Positions 35,187 to 41,612 of a stretch of DNA of 64,000 bases are shown in pieces. Each line of letters starts with the position of its first letter. Within the stretch, counting starts at the first letter, position 1. The position numbers and the translations under genes were made by a program. The stretch is taken from assembly GCA_911728435.2 (NCBI GenBank), contig OU452209.1:12878869-12942868 (forward strand), in the 5' to 3' direction. Source of the DNA: Apoderus coryli. Lineage: Eukaryota; Arthropoda; Insecta; Coleoptera; Attelabidae. The notes beneath the pieces were generated by a model. The model was not told where the DNA came from. It did no database searches and saw nothing but the letters and a program-made list of their open reading frames with translations.

Positions 35187-35383
35187 TTTGATTCTTGATT
35201 TATAATTTAACCGTTCATTCATGATCTCTTGATAGTTTGATTATTGATTTATAATTTAACCGTTCATTCATAATCTTTTGATAGTTTGATTATTGATTTA
35301 TGATTTAACCGTTCATTCATAATCTTTTGATAGTTTGATTATTGATTTATAACCTATCCGTTCATTCATAATATTTTGATGAT
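35187..35383 (+). repeat. 49 bp tandem repeat, about four copies
   Basis: Unit starts TTTGATTATTGATTTATAAT and contains AACCGTTCATTCATAATC. Copies start at 35187, 35236, 35285 and 35334, a constant 49 bp period. The last copy is more diverged. No spacers, so it is a minisatellite. Confidence 0.9.
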
Positions 35384-36045
35384 TTGTTTATAATTTTATT
35401 ATTTATTCATTCACCGTTGTGCACTGGCTGCAAGGTCCAATTAAATTTTAAGAATCGACCTCTGTGTTTTTTTTTGTTTTTACGAATACCTCGCTCAGGT
35501 GTTTCGGTGCTAAGGTGTTGGTTATTCTGGGGTTTGTTAATGGGATCATATATTGACTGGTAGGGTTTTCATGGTTTCAATACTGGTGATTCGAGTGGAT
35601 GATCTAGCGAAGTAAAATAAAATCATGTGGCGCCCCTTTTAGTAAGATCATACGAACCAGCCCACCTTCACTGATTGCTGCCGGCCTTCGCCTAGATTAC
35701 GCGTCAGAACGAGCCCCATTTGTTTCCCGGAAATAACCCGAAGGCACCTATTATTGTAAGGTAATTTTTTATAAAGATAAATAATTAAAAATTCGCCACA
35801 CCAAGCCAACTGAAACGAATCCATAGTTTAGCCTAGGACGCATTTAATAGGTAAGCAACATTTAATTATTTACAATGTCTACAAAAACAATCAAAATTAG
35901 TTTGGCACGTTTCAGGTTCTCTCGACATTGATTAGAGGAGGTAAAAGAAGAATCACGGTCACAACTAGTGTAAAAATAAAATGACTAGGCATTAATAATG
36001 AATCAGAAATTAATATACGAGGCGTTCCAAGTACAAGAGTACAAG
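35384..36045. other. no gene recognised
   Basis: Contains TGGCGCCCC at 35632, mentioned as a possible primer-binding site. No coding motif. Confidence 0.4.
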
Positions 36046-36058
36046 AATATTTTTATAT
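36046..36058 (+). repeat. target-site duplication, left copy (AATATTTTTATAT)
   Basis: 13 bp identical to 36380-36392, flanking the 321 bp foldback insertion. Confidence 0.7.
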
Positions 36059-36379
36059 AGGAAATGAAAAACGTCTACTCCACACAAAACTTTTTATCTA
36101 CATGTTCAAACCAGAACACAACGGTCATATATGTTTCGAGACCCGAAGTCTCATCGTCAGTGACTTAATACAGAATCGAAGATAGTTTAAACATTTACAT
36201 AATCTAAAACAGATGCACACAAATAAGATACATTATTCTTGAATCTTGAAAATCACAAGTCTTACCACTTTGTGGGAAAAGTAATACTTGAACTTGTAGA
36301 TAAAGAATTTTGTGTGGAGAAGACGTTTTTCATTTCCTACATAGACAGCACTCCTCTCTAATGGATTACTTCAATAAAC
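36059..36379. mobile_element. 321 bp foldback element with hammerhead-like core
   Basis: Arms 36059-36109 and 36288-36338 are inverted copies, 47 of 51 bases matching, starting AGGAAATGAAAAACGTCT. Outside the right arm is a 41 bp tail ending CAATAAAC. A 13 bp duplication flanks the unit, as expected for target-primed reverse transcription rather than for TA-type DNA transposons. The loop carries a well-preserved hammerhead-like core (36133-36160). No protein is coded. It is most simply a short, non-autonomous relative of a Penelope-like element, an inference. Confidence 0.75.
36121..36164 (-). ncRNA. hammerhead ribozyme candidate, best preserved in the window
   Basis: Minus strand: helix I GTCA, then CTGACGA, one T, stem II GAGAC / GTCTC with loop TTCGG, GAAAC, a very short helix III, and ATATGAC whose TGAC pairs with GTCA. 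All invariant core bases are present and helix I can close, with AUA as candidate cleavage triplet. Such tiny helix III hammerheads are known from PLEs and related retroelements. Confidence 0.65.
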
Positions 36380-36392
36380 AATATTTTTATAT
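36380..36392 (+). repeat. target-site duplication, right copy
   Basis: AATATTTTTATAT, identical to 36046-36058. Confidence 0.7.
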
Positions 36393-36774
36393 CATGTCAA
36401 ATAAACTTAACTAAAGTAAGTATTTAGATTTTCATAAGATCAGATATTTTTTTAATAAATTTTAAGAAATTGCGTCAAATGTAATTCCTACCCAACTTTT
36501 GTCGTTACATGATGTGCTATTGTCGCTCATTTGTTACGTAACTTTTCACTCAATTGTCAACTAATAAAATTACTGATATTGACTTTAAAGGATAACAAAA
36601 GTCAATTGCAATGTTACCATAAAGCAAATATAAATACCTATCTGAAGTAGAAGGGCTACGTAATAAATCTGTGAATAGATTTTGTTTTCATTCTTAAACT
36701 AATCAGCTGCGGCAAAAACGTTAAGAGAGAATATTATTTGATTTATTTCGTGAAGTTCGTGGGTAGTAAGGCAA
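36393..36774. other. no gene recognised
   Basis: AT-rich, nothing to report. Confidence 0.5.
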
Positions 36775-36807
36775 CAAGTAAAATAAAGTTACAACACTTT
36801 ATTCAAA

Positions 36808-36850
36808 GTCAGCGACGTTTCGTGGGTTAATGTCCACTTTTTCAAGCTAC
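36808..36850 (-). ncRNA. degenerate hammerhead-like motif at PLE 3' end
   Basis: Minus strand reads CTTGAAAAAGTGG, a spacer, CCCACGAAACGTCGCTGAC. GTGG/CCAC can form stem II and CGAAAC with a following GTC are kept, but CUGANGA is not. Same strand as the PLE coding remnant. Confidence 0.4.
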
Positions 36851-37204
36851 AAATAAAAACTTATAAGAACATGACAATTTAAAATAAAATATAAAGTAGG
36901 TATATAAACAGAAAATTGTAATTAATTACCTTTCTTTTTCAAAGTGTTGAATACATAAAAATAAAATATGTTGCTAAAGTCATCATAAAGTAAAAACGAC
37001 AAAAAACTATAAGAACTGATGTTGATTCGAGTGTGGATTCTGGTATAAACACTTAAATCTGAATATCATGGTCAGTAAAATATTTTTAAAAATTCGTTAA
37101 ATGTATATCAATAAATAAAAACGATTATAACATATAAAAAACTATATAAAACATATTGGTAAAAAATACTATACAGAACAAAATAAATACAAGGCACACA
37201 TATA

Positions 37205-38733
37205 CAGGATGTCCCCTCTCAATTGGAAAAAACTTCTGGGGCATATTGAGGAACCATAGACAAGCAGTTTGAGATAAGAGACTGATGTCCGGAAGTGCAT
37301 AGTTTTCAAAATACATAGTGTCAAAGTTTTTTCAAAAAACCTTTTTTTATCAATATCTTAACCGATTTTCTTGAAATTCGCTAGTGATGTAAGCTTAATA
37401 AGACGCTCAGTTAGCACTATTTAAATGTTAATTATGACTTCCAGTGGCGCCCCGGGGGACAGTGTCACGAATAAAAATGACAAAAAAAATGTACGCTACT
37501 GACTTTTTGAAAATTTTATATTTTTTAGAAAGCTCAGTTAAAAATACAACTTTTTTGTCACTTGATATTTTTTCCTATCTCTCTCCGTTTTCGAGAAAAA
37601 TTTTTTATAAAAAACTTTATTAAAAGGTTCATTATTATTAGAAAGAAAAACAAGGAGGCTTTTTTAAAAATATTTTATTATTAATAGTGGAGCAAATGCT
37701 CAAAGTGTTCACCATGTATTTCGATGCATCTTCGGCACCTGTCCAGCCCGGATTCGCGCACCCGAGCAAACACGCCTGGATCGTTCGCGATAAATTCCGC
37801 TGCCACCACAACTCTAGCAACTAGGTCCTTCATTGTCGGCACAGGAGTTGCATAGATCAACCGTTCCATTTCGCCCCAAAGAAAAAAGTCCAGGGGGCCA
37901 AGTCCGGCGACCTTGCTGGCCAAGGGACGGGACCACCTCTACCAATCCAATCCACCTGTTGTTGTAGGTTTGGTCGAGGTAACCTCTCACGGTGCGCGCA
38001 AAATGCGCTGGACAACCATCATGTTGGAACCAGGCCTCTCTACAGCCAAGGAGCGTTGCCAGGCAGTAGAAGCTGCACCTTTTGAAGGTTAAATGGATGC
38101 AGATCGTGGATTTTCAATACTCGATGGACAGTATTTTTGCTGCAATCAAGTCGCGACGCAATCTGACGAGTGCTAGTGTTGGGCTCATTCTGAATGCGTG
38201 TCATGACTGCATCCTCAACGGCATTTCTGATCGGACACTGCCTTGCAAATTCTCGAATAGGCTGCAAAGATAACAAAGCCTCTTAGATTGGCTGTAAAAC
38301 AGAAACGCGCAAGAAAAAAACACAGAAAGTTGCCATTTCTGTAATACTTACCACGAATAAGACGGTCTCCCGTAGATTTTGATTAATTTTGACAAAAATT
38401 TTATGGTTTGGCAATTCACGATTTTGGAACCGCTGCCCCCGTACCGTTGTGCTAACAAAGAATTACCTCGCGCTTCCCCATATAAGAGATGCATATCTGC
38501 AAGCTCGGCTAATTCAAAACGATTCATTTTTGCAATTAGTGTAACGTTTGAAGATAATTAAGTACTTATGTCTTTGAGATATTGATAAAAAAAAACGTTT
38601 TTTGAAAAAAACTTTGACACCCTGTATTTTGAAAACCATGCACTTCCGGACATCAGTCTCTCATCTCAAACTGATTGTCTATGGTCCCTCAATATGCGCC
38701 AGAAGTTTTTTCCAATTGAGAGGGGACACCCTG
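37205..38733 (-). mobile_element. mariner/rosa-like transposon with ~160 bp terminal repeats, internally deleted
   Basis: Left end CAGGATGTCCCCTCTCAATT, right end reverse complement CAGGGTGTCCCCTCTCAATT. The inverted repeats run about 160 bp (37205-37366, 38575-38733) with few differences. TA flanks both ends (37203-37204, 38734-38735). It contains two transposase pieces on the minus strand. The repeats suggest a young copy, but the coding region lacks its middle. Confidence 0.92.
37681..38276 (-). pseudogene. rosa/mariner-like transposase, internally deleted
   Basis: N-terminal piece 38276-38040: helix-turn-helix DAVMTRIQNEPNTSTRQIAS, RLDCSKNTVHRVLKIHDLHP and FNLQKVQLLLPG. After a stop, another frame gives AWFQHDGCPAHFARTVRGYL with the second catalytic Asp (about 38020), then ARSPDLAPLD and LDFFLWGEMERLIYATPVPT with the third Asp, to the C-terminus RCRRCIEIHGEHFEHLL (37681). 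The segment with the first catalytic Asp (FTDE) is deleted, so the protein cannot be active. Confidence 0.85.
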
Positions 38734-38753
38734 TATATACAAACACCATAAGT

Positions 38754-39250
38754 TCATAATGATAACTGTACTTTGTATTTTTGTAATAAATCTATGTACA
38801 GGTTACTCAAACTCTGCGTGTCAGTTCTTAAGTTAACTGTATCATGCAAATTAATTTGAAGCATCTCACTGACATTACGTTTTCTAATAGTTGGATTCCC
38901 TATCAAGGACCTCAACAGACTCAAACTTAAAAAGATATCCATTATCAAAATGGTGAATGGCGAGAACTGTCTTTTCAATTTTATGCTGGTTGTGATTCCT
39001 ACAATCGGTCTTGTGTTGTTTCACCCTATTATTTAAATATTGTTTTGTTTGGCCAATATAATACTTTCCACATTCGCATGGAATTCCATACACCAAATTT
39101 GATTGTTTTTCAAATGGAATTGGATCTTTCAGTTTTGTGTAGAACTGATTCAAAGTATTAATATTATAAAAAGCCAATTTTATATTCGTTTCTCTAAGAA
39201 CATGCTTAACACTATAAGAAAGTCCCTCAGTGAACTTCACTAAATGTTTA
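38754..39250 (-). pseudogene. Penelope-like element, GIY-YIG endonuclease domain
   Basis: From about 39250 the minus strand reads VKFTEGLSYSVKHVLRETNI, KLAFYNINTLNQFYTKLKDP, then the GIY-YIG nuclease LVYGIPCECGKYYIGQTKQY with LNNRVKQHKTDC, and DNGYLFKFESVEVLDRESNY. The nuclease nicks the target for priming. The Y-x-Y-I-G core is intact (KYYIGQT) and the Cys pair CECG is present. After 38884 a frame change leads to the last residues (KRNVSEMLQINLH). The RT domain is absent. Confidence 0.88.
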
Positions 39251-40199
39251 TATCACAAGGCACGAAGCATTAAAAAAAAAATATGATTTGAGATAAAATA
39301 ATGAGACCAAAGATCTGCAAGTTGTCATTAACATAAAGAATAAACCAAAGAGCAGCTGTCTGAAATAATCCAGTAAAATATATGGCATAAATTCTGAAAA
39401 CACCAAAAAATGAATACCTATATTTTAGTAATTCAATTTTTTTCCAAACCACATGTGTCAATGAACATCAGATCGAACAAATAAAAGAGCAGACAGCTGC
39501 TCGCATTCTACAAGAAAATAAAACAAACAAAGAAAGACGTATACTCATTCCGAGTTTGATATCATCGCTCCTATCGTATTCAACCGACGATGCGACGCCT
39601 CGAAATTCAAAAGACTTTATGTTGCATGTTTCCGCTTCATTTTGCTGAGTCCCCCTTTGTAGCATTTCAGAAAACCATTCCTTCTCTGTTACAGTGTTAC
39701 TCGGAAATAACTATAGTGCTTTTTAAAATAGTCCCATTTCCTATCTAGATGAAAACTGGAATCTTGATTGTTAAATTTATGTGCGTAAACGGTAGTCTGC
39801 GATAAAATTACTATTGTTTTTATCGGTGGTGGATGTTGTGCTTCGTTTTATTTAATGACTTTCTTGCACTCCATAGATACAGGCTGAACAAACTCAATTC
39901 GGCACATTTTGAAAAAATATATATATATATTTTCGATTAATGCGACTAAAAATCAGTATCGTTAATTTTATTCGACTGCGCCAATTACTTTAATCTGTCA
40001 AATTTGTTGAAGTGCCTTAACATGAATCTCTATACAAACGCCGAGATGACCGACAATCACTCCATCTATGGACTCGCTGATGGCAATGCATTATAAGCTA
40101 GGCGGTTGTACACTGAAAGATTTCCTCACTATATGGCTCCTAAAAGAAAAATTATAATAAAAACCTCAGGTCAGGAAGACTAATAGTTGTATTGGCATA
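39251..40199. other. no gene recognised
   Basis: Mixed AT-rich sequence with a short (TA)n run near 39920. Minus-strand frames at 39270-39665 have no known motif. Confidence 0.45.
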
Positions 40200-41102: not shown

Positions 41103-41612
41103 AAATCAAAAGTTTAATGGTTCTAACTTCTAATATTTCTATAATATGGCACTTTCAAAATCAACACGTCTTAACGTTTCGTTTTGCAGCTGCCACCCTC
41201 AACTTTGTTTTTTCAAATACAGACCTGCATTTTTATTTGTCACTACCTTTAAAATAAAGTATAACTCAAGTACTTGCATAATTTTTTGCTTAGCTAAAAT
41301 ACGACATGTGTTAGTACCTAATGCCCTTTAAAATACTTTATTTTGGCTCAGCAAAAAGAATGCGGGTCTGCATCACGGAAAAATCATTGATGATGACTAC
41401 TATCGAATCGAAACGTCGAGATCATCCTTGAGTTATACCTTATTTTAAAGGTAGTGACAAACCATTTTAGAAAACAAAATTAAAAATGCAGGTTCGAATT
41501 TAAAAAAAAAAACAAAGTTGATGGCGACAGGTGTAAGGCAAAACGGCGGACGCTAATTTTGCTAAAGTGCCGTCTTGTAGACATATTAGAACCATTAAAC
41601 GCTTGATTTTAA
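41103..41612. repeat. ~510 bp foldback element with hammerhead-like motif
   Basis: Left arm about 41103-41273, right arm about 41430-41612, inverted and imperfect. Shared blocks: GTTTAATGGTTCTAA, GGCACTTT, CAACTTTGTTTTTT, CCTGCATTTTTA, TTGTCACTACCTTTAAAATA, GTATAACTCAAG. The loop carries a hammerhead-like motif at 41387-41423. No protein is coded. Similar architecture to 36059-36379, though the arms are unrelated in sequence. Confidence 0.75.
41387..41423 (+). ncRNA. hammerhead-ribozyme-like remnant
   Basis: TTGATGA (for CUGAUGA), one T, a weak stem II (GACT / AATC), CGAAAC at 41409-41414, then GTCGAGATC. It lies in the loop of the foldback element. One core base is changed, so activity is doubtful. 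Confidence 0.45.

What the first reader, a model, noticed from the sequence alone, without database searches (positions are those of the whole stretch)
36046..36392. 321 bp foldback element with a well-formed hammerhead and 13 bp target duplication
51 bp inverted arms, no coding, a complete hammerhead-like core whose helix I also closes, and a duplication of the length made by target-primed reverse transcription. A short non-autonomous retroelement built from inverted arms around a self-cleaving ribozyme would be a distinctive type, perhaps mobilised by PLEs.
Basis: partly seen in the sequence, partly recalled or inferred. Interest (0 to 1): 0.75.

Follow-up and report, generated by a model that had tools for sequence, protein, structure and literature searches.

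The report
Two-ended scrap of a Penelope retroelement
The short foldback with a self-cleaving RNA motif is not a new kind of mobile element but the stub of a common Penelope-like retrotransposon, and its two unlike ends fit a pattern seen in other copies in this genome that hints at how such elements copy themselves into DNA from both sides of a cut.

Summary
In detail: a 321-bp insert (36059-36379), inverted arms, a hammerhead on the minus strand, a 13-bp target duplication. Thirty other genomic matches to the joined flanks run across the junction without the insert (one read base by base). The interpretation meets its own refutation test. Longer relatives in the 428-Mb genome run into Penelope-like elements (PLEs), with the same hammerhead about 1 kb 3' of the endonuclease in 20 of 20 loci. 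None of the other scored matches shares the window's internal junction. It is best read as a heavily 5'-truncated PLE insertion made of two cDNAs, one per target end. One arm ends at a 'tail' site (T), six codons into the PLE ORF; the other about 42 nt earlier (N). That pairing recurs: 23 of 24 two-armed insertions typed here have one T and one N end, including 10 of 10 dimers chosen before their ends were read. Opposite-strand PLE neighbours are head-to-head in 27 of 27 cases. Inverted pLTRs and an optional tail are published; the counted one-T-one-N regularity and its mechanism deserve follow-up.

The parts
36046..36058 (.). target-site duplication, left copy AATATTTTTATAT
   Evidence: one counterpart, 2 of 13 letters different, at the empty site L105
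36059..36295 (-). N-type cDNA: PLE 3' region in sense on the minus strand, ending at the no-tail site (36059)
   Evidence: matches other copies to about query 247-250; N ends
36060..36109 (-). inverted arm, N side
36124..36164 (-). PLE-type hammerhead: GUCA-CUGACGA-U-helix II-GAAACAUAUA|UGAC; predicted cut between 36128 and 36127
   Evidence: conserved in relatives
36288..36295 (.). junction of the two cDNAs; the N-side and T-side matches overlap here (up to 8 nt, TTGAACTT)
   Evidence: match ends q243-250
36288..36379 (+). T-type cDNA: PLE 3' region in sense on the plus strand, ending at the tail site (36379)
36338..36379 (+). 42-nt tail present on this arm only; includes ATGGATTACTTCAATAAA (36361-36378, MDYFNK)
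36380..36392 (.). target-site duplication, right copy

Best explanation
The insert is a relic of one integration by an endonuclease-bearing Penelope-like element. Both 3' ends of a staggered cut at an AT-rich site primed reverse transcription on PLE RNA near the junction of its 3' region and ORF start. One end started at the tail site (T, six codons into the ORF); the other started about 42 nt upstream (N). Both cDNAs stopped early (about 92 and 237 nt) and were joined head-to-head, giving inverted arms; filling the staggered ends gave the 13-bp duplication. The hammerhead is the PLE ribozyme and lies only on the longer, N-type arm. Shown: PLE membership, the two end sites, duplication, empty site, one-T-one-N pairing. 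Inferred: that the end sites are start sites of reverse transcription here, priming from both ends, use of one RNA by both primers, end joining.
For: 81 matches in the own genome (208 candidates, 40 scored). In 38 further loci (L021-L058) shared sequence thins out away from the arm end, as in 5'-truncated retroelements. ORF pieces with a YIG motif lie upstream in two longer copies; the one in L059 is similar to the window fragment that Pfam calls GIY-YIG. Of 52 relatives of the L072 ORF, 48 carry RVT_1 and 6 GIY-YIG (7997 candidates scored); NCBIfam RT match 2.1e-7, below its cut-off. Hammerhead in 20 of 20 GIY-centred loci and at 20 of 20 ends of ten dimers; core and helices intact in 32 of 46 segments. 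Opposite-strand neighbours within 12 kb: 27 head-to-head, 0 tail-to-tail (150 hits scored of 2656 candidates). T/N ends: 10 of 10 dimers whose ends I had not seen when I chose them, sharing 12-18 nt across the insert against at most 9 nt in 90 mismatched pairs; 5 of 5 further dimers with 12-13 nt; 8 of 9 short two-armed copies. One-armed copy L028 starts with 13 nt of T beside a 12-nt repeat; L029 and, more weakly, L034 look alike. The longer arm is N in L001 and L042 and T in L032, so neither arm is regularly the template of the other.
Against: One short copy is N/N without a duplication (L058); L026 and L040 are T/N without one, and the 8-nt repeat of L044 does not abut its N end. L022 and L035 have 16- and 14-nt repeats but no T start. 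T-start-like 10-mers occur by chance 28 times in 128 kb, so the short T remnants count only where a flank repeat abuts. Five of 13 copies examined have clear palindromic centres with spacers of 0-34 nt (L106, L108, L041, L051, L058), which a fold-back step would also give. Later deletion inside a palindrome could have made the arms of the window copy unequal. In vitro work on the PLE PAc saw no difference in start site between strands (PMC11167929, section 3 read). Pfam found no family in the ORF of L072 or in the pieces of L059 and L060.
Confidence: 0.8

Rival explanations
1. Self-priming: one PLE cDNA starts at T, folds back at its 3' end and copies itself, giving a head-to-head palindrome; second-strand synthesis stops at N and is joined to the other target end. 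The window copy then lost its centre by deletion.
For: Self-priming, on an antisense template, was proposed in print for head-to-head PLE structures (PMC3846280, Discussion read). Spacers of 0-34 nt in the five clear palindromic centres of 13 examined.
Against: In the window copy the T arm holds a tail that the N arm lacks, and the N arm holds about 180 nt that the T arm lacks (36110-36287), so neither could be copied from the other without a later deletion; L028, with a 13-nt T arm, needs such a deletion too. A stop exactly at N in nearly every dimer needs a separate cause.
Confidence: 0.15
2. A distinct short non-autonomous foldback retroelement (retrozyme-like) that PLEs mobilise in trans.
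For: Size, hammerhead, strong self-pairing and a long duplication resemble metazoan retrozymes (PMC7229834, passages read).
Against: No other scored match shares the junction; the arm sequences continue into PLE 3' regions; no tandem multimer of it in the window; the hammerhead is of the minimal kind with a 1-bp stem III.
Confidence: 0.03
3. A TA-flanked MITE whose 13-bp repeat is chance.
For: TA dinucleotides flank GGAAATG...CATTTCC.
Against: The right arm is followed by a conserved 42-nt tail before the repeat; 30 of 30 other matches to the joined flanks run across the junction, and the one read base by base has the counterpart of the 13-mer once; the arms are PLE sequence.
Confidence: 0.01

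Closest known systems
Endonuclease-containing Penelope elements with inverted pLTRs (Adineta vaga, PMC3846280; passages and Discussion read)
   Same: ORF with RT and GIY-YIG domains, inverted terminal copies, a 31-bp tail optionally on one of the inverted pLTRs and extending into the ORF start, 8-10-bp duplications, head-to-head arrangement
   Different: Here the whole insertion is two short 3'-end pieces with no ORF body, and the one-T-one-N pairing is counted over 24 insertions
PAc, the Anolis Poseidon PLE studied in vitro (PMC11167929; section 3 read)
   Same: hammerhead near the ORF start, two adjacent internal reverse-transcription start sites whose interval is the tail, AT-rich cutting, extension of both target strands
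   Different: PAc starts mostly 111-118 nt into its ORF, here T is about 19 nt in; PAc showed no strand difference in start site
Metazoan non-LTR retrozymes (PMC7229834; passages read)
   Same: small, non-coding, type I hammerhead, self-paired, AT-rich
   Different: no sign of a tandem or dispersed unit with this junction; PLE-derived
L1 twin priming (recalled, not looked up)
   Same: both target ends prime reverse transcription, giving an inversion
   Different: here both primers use the same 3' region of the RNA, so the pieces overlap and fold back

Membership tests
Endonuclease-containing PLE | RT and GIY-YIG in one ORF in full copies | tested here: met
   679-aa stretch of L072 with YADD and YIGQTGR motifs (motif names recalled); RVT_1 in 48 and GIY-YIG in 6 of 52 relatives; Pfam itself gave none for this ORF
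Endonuclease-containing PLE | minimal type I hammerhead near the terminal repeat | tested here: met
   20 of 20 loci; 32 of 46 segments intact; cleavage not testable here
Endonuclease-containing PLE | optional tail at one end, reaching into the ORF start | tested here: met
Endonuclease-containing PLE | tandem or inverted arrangement of copies | tested here: met
   27 head-to-head pairs and 12 same-strand pairs, 8 of these 3.58-3.62 kb apart
Endonuclease-containing PLE | short target duplication | tested here: met
   absent in L026, L040, L058
Metazoan retrozyme | tandem repeats of 150-450 bp spanning hammerheads | tested here: not met
   for the window; no other scored match with the same junction; the other copies were not scanned for tandem arrays
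Metazoan retrozyme | circular RNA intermediate | not testable with these tools
   no transcript data
TA-type MITE | terminal inverted repeats directly flanked by a TA duplication | tested here: not met
   42-nt tail between right arm and repeat; empty site shows a 13-bp duplication

The most novel reading that the evidence does not exclude
PLEs may integrate normally by two-ended target-primed reverse transcription on a single RNA: the two 3' ends of a staggered cut seize two neighbouring start sites, T and N, on the same molecule. Because both primers cannot share one site, an insertion gets one tailed and one untailed end; because both copy one template towards its 5' end, the product is a head-to-head dimer with near-identical arms. 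The optional tail of PLEs would then be the mark of which target end primed where, and foldbacks like this one its shortest products.
Probability: 0.5. Interest if true: 0.75.

Novelty: new member of a known kind. Interest (0 to 1): 0.5.

Why it matters
How PLEs integrate is open in the papers I read: a 2013 paper (PMC3846280) inferred self-priming from head-to-head structures, and a 2024 paper (PMC11167929) found two start sites and extension of both strands in vitro but left later steps unvalidated. The end pairing counted here gives a simple genomic test between these views. It also warns that short foldbacks with hammerheads in PLE-rich genomes may be PLE stubs rather than new elements.

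Tried and rejected
Rfam gave nothing relevant. Pfam on 9-kb frames with stops read as X gave only one match, a transposase domain below its cut-off. A second palindromic element at 41103-41609 looked at first like another hammerhead foldback; the pattern search does not list its core, and I leave it as a probable DNA element. Exact-pattern scans of the viral and prokaryote collections for the arm found nothing. A MITE reading was held until the genome search answered. L047 was first taken for a T end, then recognised as a tandem junction running into the ORF; it is in no end count. L025 has one untyped end and was dropped from the end counts. L030 and L031 share their flanks and may be one duplicated insertion; neither is in the counts. 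L040 was first taken as a copy with unequal arms; its N arm is interrupted by about 200 nt and then goes on, so it is not used for arm length. The whole-genome searches score only the best candidates, so copy numbers are lower bounds and unscored copies may differ. The descriptor was written after seeing the hit. The short-arm search looked for opposite-type far ends only; one search then looked for same-type far ends sharing at least 7 nt with the flank and listed none.

Full report
What is there. The insert is 36059-36379 (321 bp) between exact 13-bp repeats. Its arms, fold and hammerhead are as described. Against the repeat being chance stand placement controls in the window and the empty site: the window's two flanks joined with one 13-mer give 32 matches, all scored; two are the window's own halves and the other 30 all run across the junction. 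The best, L105, aligns over 450 columns at 81% with no gap in the 13-mer or at the junction and holds its counterpart once, with 2 of 13 letters different. At 71-82% identity the target looks like an older dispersed repeat (inference).

Relatives. The window lies in a 428-Mb, 129-contig assembly. A search with the 347-bp element gave 81 matches (208 candidates, 40 scored). I fetched 38 further loci. No other match joins the left block (to about query 250) to the right block (from about 243) as the window does, so nothing seen suggests that the 321-bp form is a family. Shared sequence thins out away from the arm end, as for 5'-truncated retroelements.

Identity. Two longer copies carry ORF pieces with a YIG motif upstream of the hammerhead in the same sense (L060 3910-4245 +, L059 3104-3676 -). 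The piece in L059 is 25% identical to the window fragment at 38884-39252, which Pfam calls GIY-YIG at 7.4e-6, above its cut-off. A genome search with the L059 piece scored 150 of 2656 candidates, many with open frames of about 750-921 aa. The ORF stretch of L072 has reverse-transcriptase and YIG motifs. NCBIfam reports an RT match at 2.1e-7, 30 bits against a cut-off of 300. Of 52 homologues (7997 candidates scored) 48 carry RVT_1 and 6 GIY-YIG, and one is named RT/GIY-YIG by its source. Pfam alone found nothing in the L072 ORF nor in the pieces of L059 and L060.

Hammerhead. 46 segments from 39 loci align with CUGAUGA-U-helix II-GAAACAUGUA|UGAC little changed. Core and helices are intact in 32 of 46, the window copy among them. 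Only the innermost helix II pair changes on both sides (C-G, U-A, U-G), so support is conservation more than covariation. All 20 GIY-centred loci have one about 1 kb downstream. The weak stem III recalls published minimal PLE motifs and an axolotl motif with a 1-bp stem III (passages); the PLE motif paper itself was not held.

Ends. Most copies end either at N (CATTTCCTA or close to it, with variable flank) or at T, 42 nt further, after ATGGATTACTTCAA(C/T)AAA. In two tandem copies this ATG opens a frame MDYF(N/I)KYS(S/T)ASRASLI... that runs to the end of the fetched locus (328 aa in L047, 103 aa in L068), so the tail holds the ORF start. This matches the published tail as the interval between two reverse-transcription start sites (PMC11167929).

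Pairs. Opposite-strand neighbours within 12 kb among the 150 scored hits are head-to-head in 27 of 27 cases. From that list I chose nine pairs, and the outermost units of one array whose central pair is on it, and fetched their outer ends without having seen them. All 10 of 10 have one T and one N end, one T being a shortened variant (L095). They share 12-18 nt across the insert against at most 9 in 90 mismatched pairs. A-runs of 4-64 nt at T ends make part of some shared strings ambiguous. Five further dimers, whose two ends lay in loci already fetched: 5 of 5 T/N, 12-13 nt; the target of L071/L072 is itself palindromic. Short copies typed at both ends: T/N in L001, L026, L032, L040, L041, L042, L044, L051; N/N in L058. 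Total 23 of 24; L025 was dropped. Shared flank strings in the short set: 13, 12, 14 (10 without tail letters), 11, 8 and 12 nt in L001, L032, L041, L042, L044, L051, the one in L044 not abutting its N end; none convincing in L026, L040, L058. L028 begins with 13 nt of T beside a 12-nt repeat, L029 with 18 nt beside an 8-nt one; in L034 the 8-nt string overlaps the 11-nt T start and is weak. T-start-like 10-mers turn up 28 times in 128 kb of background. L022 and L035 have 16- and 14-nt repeats but no T start.

Mechanism. Two cDNAs primed from the two target ends explain head-to-head orientation, outward 3' ends, duplication and unlike ends. Over the 244-453 nt compared, the two arms of a dimer are 98.6-100% alike. 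In one dimer (L092/L093) an arm of another dimer is closer than the partner, and in three dimers others tie at 100%. This suits a shared template but does not prove it. Of 13 copies examined, five have clear palindromic centres, with spacers of 0-34 nt (L106, L108, L041, L051, L058), which suits a common RNA 5' end or a fold-back. In the window copy each arm holds sequence that the other lacks, so neither templated the other unless deletion followed.

Print. Inverted pLTRs, a tail on one of them, head-to-head preference and self-priming are in PMC3846280 (passages and Discussion); two start sites and both-strand extension in PMC11167929 (section 3). In the listings and in the parts that I read I saw no statement of a one-T-one-N rule. 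Most listed papers were not opened and key PLE papers are not held, so it may be in print.

Noticed in passing
about 36742-39252 (-): A more distant PLE remnant: GIY-YIG ORF at 38884-39252, followed by a DNA element with 165-bp inverted ends (37200-38738; weak Tc3-type transposase match inside) and a degenerate PLE-like hammerhead at about 36799-36850 (read by eye).
   Followed up: partly
20599 (-) and 21310 (+): Two further CUGANGA-helix II-GAAACGUU cores with the same extra base before helix II, 700 bp apart and on opposite strands; the descriptor, which asks for helix I, does not list them.
   Followed up: no
41103-41609: Long palindromic element made of several nested inverted repeats, probably a DNA foldback or MITE.
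   Followed up: partly
35187-35405: 49-bp tandem array, 4.5 copies, not far from the target repeat.
   Followed up: no
L084, L097, L102: T ends of these PLE dimers run into 44, 64 and 36 A residues; the N ends printed show no such run. Possibly slippage or untemplated addition at the T start.
   Followed up: no
L071/L072: A PLE dimer sits at the centre of a target that, read by eye, is itself a palindrome of about 50 nt.
   Followed up: no
L101 928 (+) and L078 198 (+): Other hammerhead-like cores near PLE ends; the one in L101 looks canonical (CUGAUGAGUCG...CGACGAAACGGCCGUC).
   Followed up: no
G000:C1:26403964-26417734: Head-to-head centre with PLE units repeated outward in tandem on both sides at about 3.6 kb.
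   Followed up: partly
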